Below are positions 33,580 to 38,957 of a stretch of 64,000 nucleotides of DNA, piece after piece; position 1 is the first letter of the stretch, and each line of letters starts with the position of its first letter. Source of the DNA: Pseudonocardia sulfidoxydans NBRC 16205. Lineage in GTDB: Bacteria > Actinomycetota > Actinomycetes > Mycobacteriales > Pseudonocardiaceae. The notes below the pieces were generated by a model. It saw nothing but the letters and a program-made list of their open reading frames with translations. It searched no databases and was not told where the DNA came from. The DNA lies in the NCBI RefSeq assembly GCF_007989085.1, contig NZ_BJVJ01000019.1, positions 1 through 64,000 on the forward strand, given 5' to 3'. The translations under genes were made by a program, and so were the position numbers.

Positions 33580-34205
33580 TCCGGTTCTGCGTCGTCGACG
33601 ACCACGAGATCGTCCACGACGGCCTGCGCGCCATGGCCGACCGCGAGGCCGACCTCGAGTTCGCGGGCTCGGTGACGACCGCGGACGAGGCCGAGGGGCT
33701 CGTCGCCGGCGCCCGCCCCGACGTCCTGCTGCTCGACATGCGGCTGGCCGGCGGCAACAGCACCGACACCTGCGCCGCGCTGGCGGCGGCGTTCCCGGAA
33801 CTGAAGATCGCCGTGTTCAGCGGGTACGGCAACCCGGAGCTGCTGGAGCAGGCCATCCGCGCGGGGGCGGCCGGCTACATCCTCAAGGAGACGACGACCG
33901 CGCGGCTGCCCGACATCATCCGGGAGCTGGCGTCGTCGGGAAGCTACTTCGACCCGCGGCTGGCCAGCGGCCTGCTGCGCCGGGCCGCGGGGTCGCGGCA
34001 GCCGGCGTTCAACGAGCGCGAGCTGGAGATCGTCCGGCTCATCGCCCGGGGCCTGGACAACCACGGCATCGGTGAGCAGGTGTGCATCAGCCCGCACACG
34101 GTCAAGTTCCACGTGACGGCGATGCTGCGCCGCCACGAGCTGGGCCGCCGCGCCGAGCTGGTGCGCCTCGCGATGGACCTGCACCTGATCGACGACACGC
34201 GCTGA
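33576..34205 (+). CDS. LuxR/NarL-family response regulator
   Basis: The 209-aa protein has a receiver domain with Asp8, Asp9 and phospho-acceptor Asp54 (LLLDMRLAGG), a Lys in YILKE, and a C-terminal LuxR-type HTH (FNERELEIVRLIARGLDNHG, ISPHTVKFHVTAML). It is cotranscribed with the GAF kinase at 31963, its likely partner. The palindrome at 31836-31855 is a candidate binding site. Confidence 0.9.
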   Translation: MIRFCVVDDHEIVHDGLRAMADREADLEFAGSVTTADEAEGLVAGARPDVLLLDMRLAGGNSTDTCAALAAAFPELKIAVFSGYGNPELLEQAIRAGAAGYILKETTTARLPDIIRELASSGSYFDPRLASGLLRRAAGSRQPAFNERELEIVRLIARGLDNHGIGEQVCISPHTVKFHVTAMLRRHELGRRAELVRLAMDLHLIDDTR

Positions 34206-34227
34206 GCCCTCGCCGCAGAACGTACGA

Positions 34228-34277
34228 ACCCTGTGAGTGGCAATAGTCGCTATAGCGACTATTGCCACTCACAGGGT
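34228..34277. repeat. Perfect 50-bp palindrome, copy 1
   Basis: Two 25-bp arms with no spacer: the left begins ACCCTGTGAGTGGCAATAGT and the centre is GTCGCTATAGCGAC. It lies between the response-regulator stop (34205) and the deacetylase stop (34281), so as RNA it could end both transcripts. A second copy with two differences is at 37680-37729. Confidence 0.95.
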
Positions 34278-34280
34278 CGG

Positions 34281-35204
34281 TCAGCCTCGCGCGAAGCTCG
34301 AGTCCGCGGGCGGCGCCTCGACGCCACGCACGTCGGGCAGCGACATGAGCCGCTTGTCCTCATCGTCGTCGACCCACGCCTTCGCGATCTCCTCGCAGGT
34401 CGCGAACCAGACACCGTCATGGCCAGCGATGTGCTGGATCAGCTTCTCGTACCACATGATGTTGTGCGCCTGGCCGATGATCTGCGGGTGCACGCACGAC
34501 GCGAACACCGGGTGCGCGACGTTCTGGTAGGCGTAGTCGAAGATGTCGCGCCAGCGCCGGAAGATCGTCTCGGTGTCCTGCATGCCGGTCGAGACGCCGG
34601 TGTAGGCGAGCGGCGGGAAGTCGTCGAGGTACCAGTTGACGGGGATCTCCAGGACCGCGCTCGCGACGCCGGCGACGTTGGGCTTCTCCCAGTTGATCTG
34701 CCAGCGCTGCGGGTGGTACGGCACCAGGTCGCGCGCCATCAGGCTGGTGTCGTAGAGGAAGCCCGACTCCTCGATGATGTCGAGGGTGTTCTCGCTGTAG
34801 TCCCAGTACGGCGAGCGGTAGCCGGTGGGGCGCAGGCCGAGCACGTTCTTGTAGCTCGCGAACGCGAGGTCGACGAGGCGGCGTTCGGTGTCGCGTTCGA
34901 TGCCCGGCGGGATCTCGTGGTAGTAGCCGTGGTGGCCGATCTCGTGGCCCGCCTCCACCACGTCCTTGCACTGCTGCGGGAACGTGTCGACGGAGTGGCC
35001 CGGGGTGAACCAGGTCGTCGTCACGTCGTAGCGGCGGTAGAGCTCCAGCAGGCGGGGGACGCCGACCTCCGCGCCGAACTGGCCGCGGGACATGAACGAC
35101 TGGGTCGGCCGGTTGAACCCGCCCAGCCACAGCGCCTGGGCATCGAAGTCGGTGCCGAGGTTGACGGCGATCTTCTTGCCCTCGGGCAGTTGCAGGTGGC
35201 CCAT
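34281..35204 (-). CDS. NodB-type polysaccharide deacetylase
   Basis: The 307-aa protein is in the carbohydrate-esterase-4/PgdA-like group: NLGTDFDAQALWLGG near the N-terminus (catalytic/metal Asp), TTWFTPGHSVDTFPQ, the metal-ligand motif GHEIGHHGYYHE and RSPYWDYSENT. HGYYH-type motifs also occur in allantoinase-like and peptidoglycan deacetylase-like proteins without a signal peptide. There is no signal peptide here, so the substrate is likely a small intracellular amide. It follows the penicillin-acylase-family gene by 26 bases, with GAAGGAGACC before ATG 35204. Confidence 0.85.
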   Translation of the reverse strand: MGHLQLPEGKKIAVNLGTDFDAQALWLGGFNRPTQSFMSRGQFGAEVGVPRLLELYRRYDVTTTWFTPGHSVDTFPQQCKDVVEAGHEIGHHGYYHEIPPGIERDTERRLVDLAFASYKNVLGLRPTGYRSPYWDYSENTLDIIEESGFLYDTSLMARDLVPYHPQRWQINWEKPNVAGVASAVLEIPVNWYLDDFPPLAYTGVSTGMQDTETIFRRWRDIFDYAYQNVAHPVFASCVHPQIIGQAHNIMWYEKLIQHIAGHDGVWFATCEEIAKAWVDDDEDKRLMSLPDVRGVEAPPADSSFARG

Positions 35205-35230
35205 TTGGTCTCCTTCTCAGGGGCGGATTC

Positions 35231-37555
35231 TCAGGGGCAGAGTTCGATGACGTGCTCTGTCGCCGCGTCGACCTGCTCACGGCTGTAGAGCAGCGGGAAC
35301 GCCTCGTTGCGGGCCCACGGACCGAAGAGGTCCGCGGCATGGGGGTCGCCGAGCCTGCCCGACTGGCCGGGCGCGTTCATCGCCAGCGACGAGTCCCATT
35401 CCCCCACGTCGACGACGAGGCGGAACGTGGAGCCCGCGCTCTGCACGAAGTTGGGCCCGTAGGCGGTGTTGCCGACGGTGTCTCCGCTGCCGCCGCGCGG
35501 CTCCGGGCCGGCGGCGAGGTGCCCGGCGGGCAGGTCGGTCAGCAGCGCGGCGAGGGGGTGGCGGGCCACCGCGACGTGCAACCGGCCCCAGCCCCACGTC
35601 GCACGGTCCGGGCCGAGCAGCGCCGCGACCTCGGCGACCGCCGCGGGCAGCGTCTGCGCGACCGTCTCGACCAGGAACTTGTCCGGGTCCGGGCCGAGCC
35701 GCTCCCCCGGGTGCTCGACCAGCTCCAGGTCGATCCGGGAGTCGGCGAGCAGGTCCTCGGCCGGGGAGATCCGGGCGGCGACCGCGGCGGGGTCGTCGAC
35801 GTGTCCGTCGAGGGCCCCGGCCAGCAGGGCCGGGCGCAGGTGGCGTCGGTACCAGACCTCGAAGACCGCGGCGGCGGCCGAGTCGGCGGCGAGTGTCGCG
35901 TCCCAGTCCAGGAGCAGGGCGAGGCCGTCGGTGTCGGCGGGCACGGCCAGCTCGCGGACCTTCGCGAGGATGCGCCGGGCCGGGACGCTCAGGAAGTCGG
36001 CCTGCAGCGCGACCATCGACTCCGGCGTCGCATCCGTCGTCTCGGCGAGGACCTCGTCGAGCCGGTGGCGCCGCGACGGCGCGTACCAGTCGTAGGTGAT
36101 GTGCCGGTCGGCCGGGAAGTCGGCGGGCAGGTTGCACTCGTTCGCCGTCGCCAGGAAGCCCTGCTCGGGGTTCACGTCGCCGGGCAGCTGGTCGGCGTCG
36201 TGGAAGCCCGCCCACTCGTAGCGGCCGTCGCCGGGCACCGGGAGCGTGCCGTCCCAGTTGGGGCGGATCGGGGTCAGGCCGCCGGTCTTCCACGCGATCG
36301 TGCCGTCGGTGTCGGCGAAGACCTGGTTCTCCGGCGGCGCGCCCCAACGGTTCATCGCGGCCAGGAACTCGTCGTAGTTGCGCGCCCGCATGTAGTCCAT
36401 GCTCCCGAGATACGGCGCCATCCCCGGCTCCAGCCACGCCGCCCGCACCACGAACGCGGTGTGCCGCACCGGGTCCTGGTGGATCACCGGGCCGTGGCGG
36501 GTGAACAGCAGCTCCACCTCGACGGGTTCGCCGCCGCGGACCTGCACGGTCTCGGTGACGCGGCGCATCGGTTCCCAGCGGTTCTCGTAGCGGTAGGACT
36601 GCGGGTCGTCCGGGTTCGTCTCGTAGACGTAGAGGTCCTCCTGGTCGATCGCGAAGATCGTCAGGCCGAACGCAATGCGCCCGTTGTGCCCGATGGAGAT
36701 CCCGGGAAGTGCGGGCTCGCCGCCGCCGATGACGTCGAAACCAGGGGCGGACAGATGCGCGATGTAGCGCAGGCCCGGCAGCGCCGCCGCGGCACGGTGC
36801 GGGTCGTTGGCCAGCAGTGGCCGGCCCGACCGGGTCCGTGACCCGGCGAGCACCCAGTTGTTGCTGCCCTCCGGCAGGACGTCACCCTGCGGGTCGAGCG
36901 GGGCCGACGGGCCGAATGCGGGCGCCGACGTCGCCAGGTCGTAGACGGCGAGCACGTCGTCCGGGATGAGGTCGAGGTCCAGCCCCTCGGGGATCGTCAG
37001 CTCACGCTCGGGCTGGCGACGCCGCCGCAGCTCCTCGACCTCCCGGGGCAGGTCACGCAGGGTGCGGGCGCGGGCCACCTCGTCACGGACGTTGTAGAAC
37101 AGCCCGTGGCTGCGGATGCGCGCGACGTCGGCCGGCTCCCACAGGGCCGGCTCGTAACCCAGCTCGCGGAACTCCACCGGCAGCAGCGAGGGGTCGCGGC
37201 GGGTCAGCTCGACGAACGCGTTCACCCCCTCCACGAAGGCGGTCGCCGCCCGCTTGGTGTCCGACCCGTAGGACAGCCACTCCTGACGCATGTCGCCGCG
37301 GTAGAGGAACAGCCGCGCCGCCCGGTCGCGCTCGACGTGCTCGGCGCCGAACACCTCGGCGAGCCGGCCCAGCCCGCGGCGGCGCCAGAAGTCGATCTGC
37401 CACAACCGGTCGCGCGCGGCGTTGAAGCCCTGCGCGCGGAAGGCGTCGTAGGTGTCGGTCGCGTAGATGTGCGGCACGCCCCAACGGTCGACGAGGATCT
37501 CGACCGGACCGCTGAGCCCCGGCACCGTGTAGGTGGTCCTGCTCTGCGTCGCCAC
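35231..37555 (-). CDS. Penicillin-acylase-family Ntn hydrolase
   Basis: The 774-aa protein has the full length of the family: an alpha chain part (VDRWGVPHIYATDTYDAFRA, QGFNAARDRLWQIDFWRRRG), a spacer, and the beta chain starting at Ser231 in LPEGSNNWVLAG, the self-processing nucleophile, with FADTDGTIAW and other conserved segments after it. It lacks a signal peptide. Family members cleave acyl amides such as penicillins, acyl-homoserine lactones or N-acyl amino acids; the substrate is open. I chose GTG 37555 because GGAGG is five bases upstream. Confidence 0.88.
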   Translation of the reverse strand: MATQSRTTYTVPGLSGPVEILVDRWGVPHIYATDTYDAFRAQGFNAARDRLWQIDFWRRRGLGRLAEVFGAEHVERDRAARLFLYRGDMRQEWLSYGSDTKRAATAFVEGVNAFVELTRRDPSLLPVEFRELGYEPALWEPADVARIRSHGLFYNVRDEVARARTLRDLPREVEELRRRRQPERELTIPEGLDLDLIPDDVLAVYDLATSAPAFGPSAPLDPQGDVLPEGSNNWVLAGSRTRSGRPLLANDPHRAAAALPGLRYIAHLSAPGFDVIGGGEPALPGISIGHNGRIAFGLTIFAIDQEDLYVYETNPDDPQSYRYENRWEPMRRVTETVQVRGGEPVEVELLFTRHGPVIHQDPVRHTAFVVRAAWLEPGMAPYLGSMDYMRARNYDEFLAAMNRWGAPPENQVFADTDGTIAWKTGGLTPIRPNWDGTLPVPGDGRYEWAGFHDADQLPGDVNPEQGFLATANECNLPADFPADRHITYDWYAPSRRHRLDEVLAETTDATPESMVALQADFLSVPARRILAKVRELAVPADTDGLALLLDWDATLAADSAAAAVFEVWYRRHLRPALLAGALDGHVDDPAAVAARISPAEDLLADSRIDLELVEHPGERLGPDPDKFLVETVAQTLPAAVAEVAALLGPDRATWGWGRLHVAVARHPLAALLTDLPAGHLAAGPEPRGGSGDTVGNTAYGPNFVQSAGSTFRLVVDVGEWDSSLAMNAPGQSGRLGDPHAADLFGPWARNEAFPLLYSREQVDAATEHVIELCP

Positions 37556-37642
37556 TGCGCCCTCCGCTTCGTCGCCGGTACTGCAGCGAGTCAAGCAAGG
37601 GAGGCGGTCGTCGTGTCGGCAGAGTTCACACGCGTTTCGAGC

Positions 37643-37668
37643 GGTGCGGCACTACCCGTTCGGGCAGC
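37643..37668 (-). promoter_or_regulatory. Second copy of the CTGCCCG-CGGG palindromic motif
   Basis: Minus strand CTGCCCGAACGGGTAG followed by TGCCGCACC. It matches the palindrome at 31836 and its flank except at three bases. It is 88-113 bases upstream of GTG 37555. Confidence 0.45.
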
Positions 37669-37679
37669 AGGGCCTGTGA

Positions 37680-37729
37680 ACCTTGTGAGTGGCAATAGTC
37701 GCTATAGCGACTATCGCCACTCACAGGGT
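37680..37729. repeat. 50-bp palindrome, copy 2
   Basis: It is identical to the copy at 34228-34277 except for two bases (the 4th and 36th), which leave 23 of 25 pairs intact. It lies between divergent genes, so it is not simply a terminator. Confidence 0.95.
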
Positions 37730-37901
37730 CGTCGCCCGCGGCAGGCCCGGGGGACGGTGGAGATCGTGGACAACCGAACCGGACAGTGGAAGCCTTTCGG
37801 CACCGTCCGACGACGGACGGCGAGCACCCGGTAGCAGGACCGCACTCACGTCAGGCGGGGTGACGCATGCGATTCCAACGGCTCGTCCCGACGTGCGCGC
37901 C

Positions 37902-38957
37902 ATGAGCGAACTGCCGCACGAGACCACCTCGATCCCCGACCCGCCCCTGGCGCGGTTCTTCCCGGGCTACTTCGCGTTCGTGATGGCGACGGGCGTCGTC
38001 GCGCTCGGGTGCAGCGCGCTCGGCGTGGCGGGCGCGGGCGAGGTGCTCTACGTCGTCGCCGCGGCCGGGTACGTGGTGATCGCCGCGCTGACCCTGGCCC
38101 GGTTGCTGCGCTACCCCGACCGCTTCCGGGCGGACCTGCTCAGCCACGCCAAGGGCTTCGCCTTCACGACGGCCGTCGCCGCGACCGAGGTGATGGGCAC
38201 CTCGAGCGCACTGGTGTTCGGGTGGTGGACGCTCGCCACGGTCCTGTGGGTGGTGGGTGTGGCGCTGTGGGTCGTGCTGCTCTACCCGCCGCTGATCGCC
38301 GTGGTGCTGCGGGTGGACAAGCCGGAGATCGGCGTCGGCATCAACGGGACGTGGTTCCTGCTGACGGTGTCGACGCAGTCGATCTCGGTACTGGGCGCCC
38401 TGCTGGCGCCGCGCCTGCAGAACCCTCTCGTCGCGTTCGTCGCGGTGACGTTCTTCGGTCTCGGAATGTTGCTCTACGTCGTCGTGATGACGATGGTGTT
38501 CACCCGCTGGACGTTTCACCGGTTGAGCCCCGACGAGGAGGACCCGCCCATCTGGATCGCGGCGGGCGCGGTCGCGATCACCACGCTCGCCGGGTCGAAC
38601 CTGCTGCTCGGGGCCGGGGCCGACCCGCTGCTGCAACGGGTCGCGCCCGCCGTCGAGCTCCTCACGCTGATGGCGTGGGCCACGGCGACGTTCTGGTTGC
38701 CGCTCATGGTCGCGATCGGGGTGTGGCGCCACGTCGTGCACCGGGTGCCGCTGCGCTACCACCCGTCGTACTGGTCGCTGGTGTTCCCGATCGGGATGTA
38801 CAGCCTGGCCACCGCGCGGATGCGGACCGCGCTCGACCTCGGGTTCCTGGCCTGGGTTCCCCCGGTCGCGCTGGGGTGGGCACTGCTGGCGTGGCTGGCC
38901 ACCTTCGCCGGGCTCGTCCACACGCTCGTCCGACGACCCGAGGAGGCGGTGCGATGA
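37902..38957 (+). CDS. TDT/SLAC1-type anion transporter
   Basis: The 351-aa protein has about ten hydrophobic segments and the family start PPLARFFPGYFAFVMATGVVALG typical of TehA/SLAC1/tellurite-resistance-dicarboxylate transporters. Plant SLAC1 relatives conduct nitrate and chloride. Here its stop overlaps the narG start (ATGA), and no narK-type transporter is in the window, so it may carry nitrate or nitrite for the nitrate reductase; this is inference. ATG 37902 has no strong ribosome binding site; a start upstream is possible. Confidence 0.8.
   Translation: MSELPHETTSIPDPPLARFFPGYFAFVMATGVVALGCSALGVAGAGEVLYVVAAAGYVVIAALTLARLLRYPDRFRADLLSHAKGFAFTTAVAATEVMGTSSALVFGWWTLATVLWVVGVALWVVLLYPPLIAVVLRVDKPEIGVGINGTWFLLTVSTQSISVLGALLAPRLQNPLVAFVAVTFFGLGMLLYVVVMTMVFTRWTFHRLSPDEEDPPIWIAAGAVAITTLAGSNLLLGAGADPLLQRVAPAVELLTLMAWATATFWLPLMVAIGVWRHVVHRVPLRYHPSYWSLVFPIGMYSLATARMRTALDLGFLAWVPPVALGWALLAWLATFAGLVHTLVRRPEEAVR

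What the first reader, a model, noticed from the sequence alone, without database searches (positions are those of the whole stretch)
34228..37729. A 50-bp perfect palindrome occurs twice and brackets a two-gene hydrolase block
Copy 1 (34228-34277) is a perfect 25+25 bp palindrome. Copy 2 (37680-37729) differs at two bases and keeps 23 of 25 pairs. They enclose exactly the NodB-type deacetylase and the penicillin-acylase-family gene. Copy 1 is between convergent genes and could be a terminator; copy 2 is between divergent genes, which excludes a simple terminator role. The conservation of both spacing and flanks (GAACC...CAGGGTCG) suggests a repeated element family, a protein target, or the edges of a mobile cassette.
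Basis: seen in the sequence. Interest (0 to 1): 0.68.

Follow-up and report, generated by a model that had tools for sequence, protein, structure and literature searches.

The report
Repeated 40-base hairpins ending genes
The two palindromes are members of a family of hundreds of near-identical 40-base hairpins that sit right behind genes in some Pseudonocardia, most likely marking where gene copying stops; they are not the edges of a mobile cassette, and why the family keeps one length and fixed ends, also seen in a few other genera, is unexplained.

Summary
The palindromes are real. Their 40-nt core (18-bp stem, 4-nt centre) belongs to a dispersed family: 318 places in this 6.58-Mb Pseudonocardia genome, reversed control 0. 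Two copies in 64 kb is ordinary (3.1 expected). The cassette reading fails: three relatives keep the genes on both sides of copy 1 together without a family copy; two of them fold another hairpin there. In 2.04 Mb, 61 of 114 copies lie between convergent genes, 43 between tandem genes, 7 (copy 2 among them) between divergent genes, 3 in called genes. Median distance to the upstream stop codon is 4 nt; in 47 of 107 the hairpin supplies the stop. Gaps with a copy seldom hold a second hairpin. At orthologous sites 28 pairs changed on both sides and stayed paired, 6 expected. Best reading: a standardised U-less, terminator-like 3'-end hairpin. Termination itself is inferred, and strand evidence for RNA action is mixed. 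Unexplained: how it spread (no REP-type transposase found), and why GTGAGTG ends and exact 40-nt length recur in three other genera.

The parts
34228..34277 (.). copy 1: 50-bp perfect palindrome; family core 34233-34272 (GTGAGTGGCAATAGTCGC-TATA-GCGACTATTGCCACTCAC)
   Evidence: exact member of the family
37680..37729 (.). copy 2: 50-bp palindrome, 23/25 pairs; family core 37685-37724 with one unpaired A/C at pair 10
33582..34205 (+). response regulator (PF00072 + PF00196, LuxR type); stop 27 nt before the copy 1 core
34281..35204 (-). polysaccharide (NodB-type) deacetylase PF01522; stop 8 nt from the copy 1 core
35231..37594 (-). penicillin amidase family gene PF01804 (start 37594 TTG, 37555 in the gene call)
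37892..38957 (+). divergent gene beyond copy 2, no Pfam family found; its called start is 168 nt from the copy 2 core

Best explanation
The palindrome is one copy of a dispersed, sequence-standardised 3'-end hairpin: an 18-bp stem with a 4-nt centre, at or a few nt behind a stop codon, that most likely ends transcription of the gene in front of it (of both genes when they converge) as an I-shaped, U-less intrinsic terminator and/or protects the mRNA 3' end. It takes the place of the one-off hairpins that other genes of the genome have there. Its arms are kept complementary at conserved sites, while fixed length and fixed ends suggest that more than pairing is constrained. Shown: the family, its placement, the shortage of second hairpins beside it, double-sided changes at orthologous sites. 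Inferred: that RNA polymerase stops there. Not explained: how one sequence came to fill hundreds of sites.
For: Placement: 61 copies against 179 convergent gaps >=40 nt, 43 against 574 tandem, 7 against 284 divergent (Fisher p 3e-21 convergent vs divergent). Tandem copies are nearer the upstream stop than the downstream start in 38 of 43; median distance to the nearest upstream stop 4 nt, n=107; stop codon inside the hairpin in 47 of 107 (37 TGA, 10 TAG) vs 4 of 110 other hairpins. Same niche as ordinary hairpins: of 172 convergent gaps of 30-400 nt 56 have a family copy, 53 another strong hairpin, 63 neither; of 241 divergent gaps 4, 6, 231. Second strong hairpin beside a copy: 3/57 convergent vs 12.4 expected from length-matched gaps (p 0.0007), 1/42 vs 3.9 tandem (p 0.09); looser cut-off 8 vs 18.3 (p 0.002) and 4 vs 9.6 (p 0.02). 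At the copy 1 site G024 and G030 fold an unrelated hairpin directly after the regulator's stop codon. In 18 ortholog pairs 28 base pairs changed on both sides and are paired in both genomes (30 changed on both sides in all), 6.0 expected if sides changed independently. Arms coupled within the genome: pair 6 105/112 vs 58 expected, pair 10 109/112 vs 57. The pair just outside the stem follows transcription: T/G 47 vs C/A 17 of 94 oriented copies, p 0.0002. Streptomyces clavuligerus Term-seq: 353 strongly folded 3' ends lacked a U-tract, 182 had one (PMC8269248, passages).
Against: No transcript data. No U-tract: T is 0-6% in the first four bases behind the oriented stem, 14-35% in the next four. 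In the S. clavuligerus paper U-lacking folded ends had more read-through than U-rich ones and may be I-shaped terminators or Rho-dependent ends. A review's reference list cites one paper titled as finding that mycobacterial polymerase requires a U-tract and one titled as finding it dispensable (titles only seen). One-sided mismatches inside the stem show no strand preference (G.U 15, A.C 15, other 12 in the transcribed strand of 94 oriented copies). 7 of 114 copies lie between divergent genes and 3 within called genes. The 4-nt centre is often self-complementary (outer pair 76/114, inner 90/114), which an RNA loop does not need. In another genus 10 of 50 listed elements keep length and ends with only 12-14 of 18 pairs. 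At comparable sites 7 of 18 have no copy in G075 and 3 of 13 none in G017. A generic terminator does not explain one shared sequence. Gene calls were home-made.
Confidence: 0.62

Rival explanations
1. REP/MITE-like mobile palindrome: copies are inserted by an enzyme and merely tolerated behind genes, where they do least harm; any effect on 3' ends is secondary.
For: Hundreds of near-identical copies here, 48-148 in seven other genus genomes and 0-5 in the remaining 54 of 62; centre TATA in 49 of 114 copies here, other centres and pair states at many orthologous sites in G017 and G075; hairpin-supplied stop codons in 47/107 would fit insertion into gene ends; 7 of 18 comparable sites have no copy in G075.
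Against: No Y1 transposase (PF01797) match in the 8 copy-rich genomes; 5 of 62 have one, none of them rich. One 40-mer query found nothing in 72,556 plasmid and 50,697 phage records. Neutral insertion does not predict the shortage of second hairpins or retention with double-sided changes at orthologous sites. Few decayed copies: 112 of 114 within 2 mismatches although up to 8 were allowed.
Confidence: 0.2
2. Target of a sequence-specific DNA-binding protein (nucleoid, roadblock or topology factor) at gene ends; the palindrome is two half-sites.
For: Exact 40-bp length with GTGAGTG ends in four genera; variation mostly at pairs 6, 9, 10, 13; self-complementary centres; no strand bias of mismatches in the stem.
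Against: Half-sites hardly occur alone (225 in pairs, 3 single); the two arms vary together far above independence, which independent half-sites do not need; the flank asymmetry follows transcription; no protein was identified.
Confidence: 0.13
3. Edges of a mobile two-gene cassette.
For: Two copies flank exactly two genes; copy 2 lies near a synteny break with G075; in G024 the deacetylase and the gene cluster beyond copy 2 are about 206 kb apart on one contig.
Against: 318 copies genome-wide, 3.1 expected in 64 kb. Regulator and deacetylase are neighbours across the copy 1 site without a family copy in G024, G010, G030. In G075 the missing stretch is a deletion that leaves acylase remnants.
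Confidence: 0.02

Closest known systems
I-shaped (U-less) intrinsic terminators of Actinobacteria (review PMC12288462, passages; Streptomyces 3' ends PMC8269248, passages)
   Same: stable hairpin within about 50 nt of the stop codon, no U-tract; here also mostly between convergent or behind tandem genes
   Different: the passages describe a structural class; here one sequence of exactly 40 nt is reused hundreds of times, with ends shared across genera
Neisserial DNA uptake sequences paired as terminators (PMC2397512, passages)
   Same: a dispersed sequence whose inverted pairs form terminator hairpins
   Different: here the half-site practically never occurs singly (3 of 228)
REP / palindromic units with RAYT (recalled; no paper read)
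   Same: dispersed palindromes at 3' ends of genes in a limited set of species
   Different: no Y1 transposase match in the copy-rich genomes; few decayed copies, fixed length
Stem-loop sequence families of bacterial genomes (PMC2267715, passages)
   Same: systematic families of repeated stem-loops; that paper discusses a terminator role for the uptake-sequence ones
   Different: the part of its genome table that I saw lists Corynebacterium and Mycobacterium for high-GC Gram-positives; I did not see Pseudonocardia in the passages

Membership tests
Intrinsic terminator, I-shaped | stable hairpin close behind a stop codon | tested here: met
   median 4 nt, n=107; window copies fold with z -7.5 to -10.4
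Intrinsic terminator, I-shaped | found at convergent and tandem gene ends, rare between divergent genes | tested here: met
   61 convergent, 43 tandem, 7 divergent, 3 in called genes, of 114
Intrinsic terminator, I-shaped | stops transcription | not testable with these tools
   no transcript data on hand
Intrinsic terminator, L-shaped (canonical) | U-tract after the stem | tested here: not met
   T 0-6% in the first four and 14-35% in the next four bases behind the oriented stem, n=94
REP / RAYT system | Y1 (RAYT) transposase gene in the genome | tested here: not met
   PF01797: 0 of 8 copy-rich genomes
REP / RAYT system | dispersed intergenic palindrome in high copy | tested here: met
   318 places; 111 of 114 sampled copies not inside called genes
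DNA uptake sequence | single copies abundant | tested here: not met
   225 half-sites in pairs, 3 single
MITE | target-site duplication at clean empty sites | tested here: inconclusive
   7 of 18 comparable sites lack a copy in G075, some with what look by eye like partial arms; no duplication was measured
Known Rfam RNA | match above a family's gathering score | tested here: not met
   window 34000-38000: 8 matches at E<=1, all microRNA-precursor models below their gathering scores

The most novel reading that the evidence does not exclude
A dedicated, lineage-spread termination (or 3'-end) system: a still unknown trans-acting factor reads a 40-nt/bp palindrome with GTGAGTG ends and constant length, and its sites fill gene ends and turn over in concert, so that lineages come to carry their own inner sequence. 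The genera that share length and ends would then hold diverged dialects of one system: either a sequence-specific terminator or roadblock site, or a self-spreading 40-bp element domesticated as terminator.
Probability: 0.3. Interest if true: 0.85.

Novelty: new variant of a known kind. Interest (0 to 1): 0.6.

Why it matters
How polymerase stops in high-GC Actinobacteria, where U-tracts are scarce, is disputed. A genome with hundreds of copies of one 40-nt hairpin at gene ends is a natural test set: the same sequence in hundreds of contexts, with natural single and compensated mismatches. The constant length and ends across genera also raise the question what reads them and how one sequence can come to occupy hundreds of gene ends.

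Tried and rejected
Cassette edges: rejected by copy number and by synteny at copy 1. DNA uptake sequence: rejected by lack of single half-sites. Y1/RAYT-driven REP: no match in the copy-rich genomes; an unknown enzyme remains possible. Canonical U-tract terminator: not met. Strand-specific RNA selection read from G.U vs A.C inside the stem: 15 to 15, no signal. Independent DNA half-sites: arms strongly coupled. Plasmid and phage carriers: one 40-mer query each, no match. Rfam: nothing above threshold. Reports in print, open-licence library only: (Pseudonocardia, palindromic repeat, intergenic) 0 papers; (palindrom, terminator, actinobacteria, convergent genes, hairpin) 1; (Pseudonocardia, intergenic, hairpin, repeat) 3; (Amycolatopsis, intergenic, palindromic, terminator) 2; (REP, RAYT, terminator, dispersed, actinobacteria; four of five) 0; (GTGAGTG, CACTCAC, terminator) 30, of which 15 listed. 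None of the listed titles and abstract starts is about such a repeat; I did not open those papers. Subscription journals are not covered.

Limits. Gene ends come from a gene caller that I wrote (codon log-odds plus start scoring), not from an annotation; single calls, above all the divergent and in-gene ones, may be wrong. The 18 ortholog pairs were picked by synteny; they come from 13 sites of this genome (five sites are compared with both relatives, so a change on this genome's branch can count twice), and three (own C3 28689, 69723, 86407 against G017) had an anchor on one side only. For copy 1 in G010 the best fold of the stretch shows no hairpin directly behind the stop codon, unlike G024 and G030. 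One-strand orientation was possible for 94 of the copies gathered. I saw inner sequences for g26 genomes and for G221; none of G310 (g37) was listed.
Full report
Observation. In the window the 40-nt core occurs only there, with none in 100 shuffles.

Family. The window is contig C19 of a 6.58-Mb, 209-contig genome. Within three mismatches of copy 1's 40-nt core there are 193 places, and 318 within three mismatches of the degenerate core GTGAGYGGYRATRGTCGC-NNNN-GCGACYATYRCCRCTCAC; the patterns read backwards give 0. The average is one copy per 20.7 kb, so about 3.1 are expected in 64 kb; two is ordinary. I took 2,044,804 bases of this genome (31%) and found 114 copies allowing up to 8 mismatches: 102 exact, 6 with one, 4 with two, 2 with six; control 0. 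Length is fixed: of 181 matches to GTGAGTG-N16..46-CACTCAC, 179 remain when exactly 26 bases are asked for between the ends. A member with a longer centre was met at C9:46119.

Taxonomy. Of 62 genus genomes 14 have any match and 8 have many: 318 (own), 148, 126, 113, 85, 85, 79, 48.

Placement. With home-made gene calls, 61 copies lie between convergent genes, 43 between tandem genes, 7 between divergent genes, 3 inside called genes. Gaps of 40 nt or more number 179, 574 and 284, so copies amount to 34% of convergent and 2.5% of divergent gaps (Fisher p 3e-21). The hairpin's edge is a median 4 nt from the nearest upstream stop codon, n=107; many distances are -14, -4 or +4 to +7, because the hairpin's own TAG (positions 12-14) or TGA (positions 2-4) is the stop in 10 and 37 cases. 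Other strong hairpins of the genome have the stop inside in 4 of 110 and lie at a median of 13 nt. Copies in the named Pseudonocardia loci behave alike: 39 convergent, 17 tandem, 1 divergent, 6 in gene, 14 at locus edges, of 77.

Same niche as ordinary hairpins. In gaps of 30-400 nt, a family copy or another strong hairpin is found in 109 of 172 convergent, 98 of 569 tandem and 10 of 241 divergent gaps; shuffled gaps reach that strength in 1, 2 and 1. Beside a family copy a second strong hairpin is scarce: 3 of 57 convergent against 12.4 expected from gaps of similar residual length (p 0.0007), 1 of 42 tandem against 3.9 (p 0.09); at the looser cut-off 8 against 18.3 (p 0.002) and 4 against 9.6 (p 0.02). 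So a copy tends to replace, rather than join, the usual hairpin.

Copy 1 in relatives. In G024 (G065 has the same letters there), G010 and G030 the response regulator and the deacetylase are neighbours as here, without a family copy. Directly after the regulator's stop codon G024 and G030 fold other hairpins; in G010 a possible one is visible by eye but is not in the best fold. This refutes the cassette edge at copy 1.

Copy 2. In the nearest relative by this test, G075 (96% over 5 kb of the gene cluster beyond copy 2), synteny ends 26 bases past copy 2 and continues in a piece of the acylase gene, 93% alike; copy 2 and part of the acylase gene are deleted there, and no deacetylase relative at E <= 1e-60 was found in G075. 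In G024 the deacetylase and that gene cluster lie about 206 kb apart on one contig. Copy 2's divergent place may thus follow from rearrangement; this is inference.

Conservation and covariation. Own contig C3 holds 23 copies in the part compared. Against G075, 18 sites are comparable (5 are not, for lack of anchors or long gaps): 8 have a family copy, 3 a hairpin with the same kind of ends but another inside, 7 none. Against G017, 13 are comparable: 9 have a family-like copy (two with longer centres), 1 an expanded relic, 3 none (my reading of the printed segments). In 18 ortholog pairs from 13 sites, 30 base pairs changed on both sides, 28 of them Watson-Crick in both genomes, where 6.0 were expected if sides changed independently; 28 changed on one side; 33 of 72 centre bases changed. 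Changes fall mostly on pairs 6, 9, 10 and 13. Inside this genome the arms vary together: pair 6 105 of 112 against 58 expected, pair 10 109 against 57, pair 13 104 against 86. All four combinations of states occur for pairs 6 and 10, 6 and 13, 10 and 13, so copying from a single master is not enough. Near-constancy of the other pairs points to constraint beyond pairing, or to copying from a few masters; the data do not separate these.

RNA or DNA? For RNA: the pair just outside the stem, read along transcription in 94 oriented copies, is T/G 47, C/A 17, C/G 13, T/A 12, others 5; T/G is a wobble in the transcript where C/A would be a mismatch (p 0.0002). Against: mismatches inside the stem are 15 G.U, 15 A.C and 12 others in the transcript strand, and the 4-nt centre tends to be self-complementary, which an RNA loop does not need.

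Beyond the genus. GTGAGTG-N18..36-CACTCAC occurs in 54 of 298 genomes of the order; apart from Pseudonocardia, counts are high in genus g26 of the same family (10 genomes, 9 to 194), in g37 (one genome, 142) and in one genome of another family (G221, g54, 25); controls 0-4. Fixed to exactly 40 nt most remain: 191 of 194, 185 of 185, 137 of 143, 137 of 142, 23 of 25; fewer in small sets (16 of 25, 6 of 9); control 0 in 13 of 13 genomes. The insides that I saw, for g26 genomes and G221, differ from Pseudonocardia's; those of g37 were not listed. In the class, 5 of 296 genomes match, and the three outside the order have one hit each. In the 50 listed elements of G151 (of 137), 38 form at least 16 of 18 pairs and 10 form 12-14 while keeping ends and length; in G221 19 of 23 form at least 17. 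Whether these too lie at gene ends was not tested.

Mechanism. Best supported: a 3'-end hairpin that ends transcription without a U-tract. U-lacking strongly folded 3' ends outnumber U-rich ones in S. clavuligerus Term-seq (353 against 182), though with more read-through, and that paper leaves open I-shaped terminators or Rho-dependent ends (PMC8269248, passages). A comparison of Term-seq sets finds few U's and the most stable, longest hairpins in Streptomyces, with transcript ends a median 66-76 nt from the gene (PMC12207403, passages), somewhat farther than a hairpin sitting 4 nt behind the stop. A review describes U-less 'I-shaped' terminators within 50 bp of stop codons in mycobacteria (PMC12288462, passages); its reference titles show that the need for a U-tract is disputed. 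The spread of one sequence remains unexplained: no Y1 transposase match in the copy-rich genomes, no plasmid or phage record with the 40-mer queried, hardly any single half-site.

Verdict. Finding confirmed, cassette rejected, repeat family established, terminator-like role likely. The fixed 40-nt length and ends across genera are the surprising part.

Noticed in passing
own genome C2:55440, C3:177504, C4:162527, C5:94516, C10:8310 and others: A second dispersed hairpin type (CGCGCAACCTCACGGTC...GACCGTGAGGTTGCGCG) at gene ends: a cluster of 16, about 14 true members by eye, 9 of the 16 convergent.
   Followed up: partly
own genome C3:72398, C4:59832, C6:60272, C9:49979, C9:66619, C9:66694: A third dispersed hairpin type (ACGAACGGCACAGT...ACTGTGCCGTTCGT), cluster of 6, 4 convergent.
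   Followed up: partly
G075 stretches L235-L244 joined, 77054 and 138067; own C2:8843: Hairpins with the same GTGAGTGG ends but another inner sequence; the two in G075 lie at sites where this genome has the main family.
   Followed up: partly
L224 7747-8001: In G075 the acylase gene beside the gene cluster is present only in pieces, with deletions.
   Followed up: no
genome G151 (genus g26): 10 of the 50 listed 40-mers have non-complementary middles, as if arms of different sub-types had been combined, with ends and length kept.
   Followed up: partly
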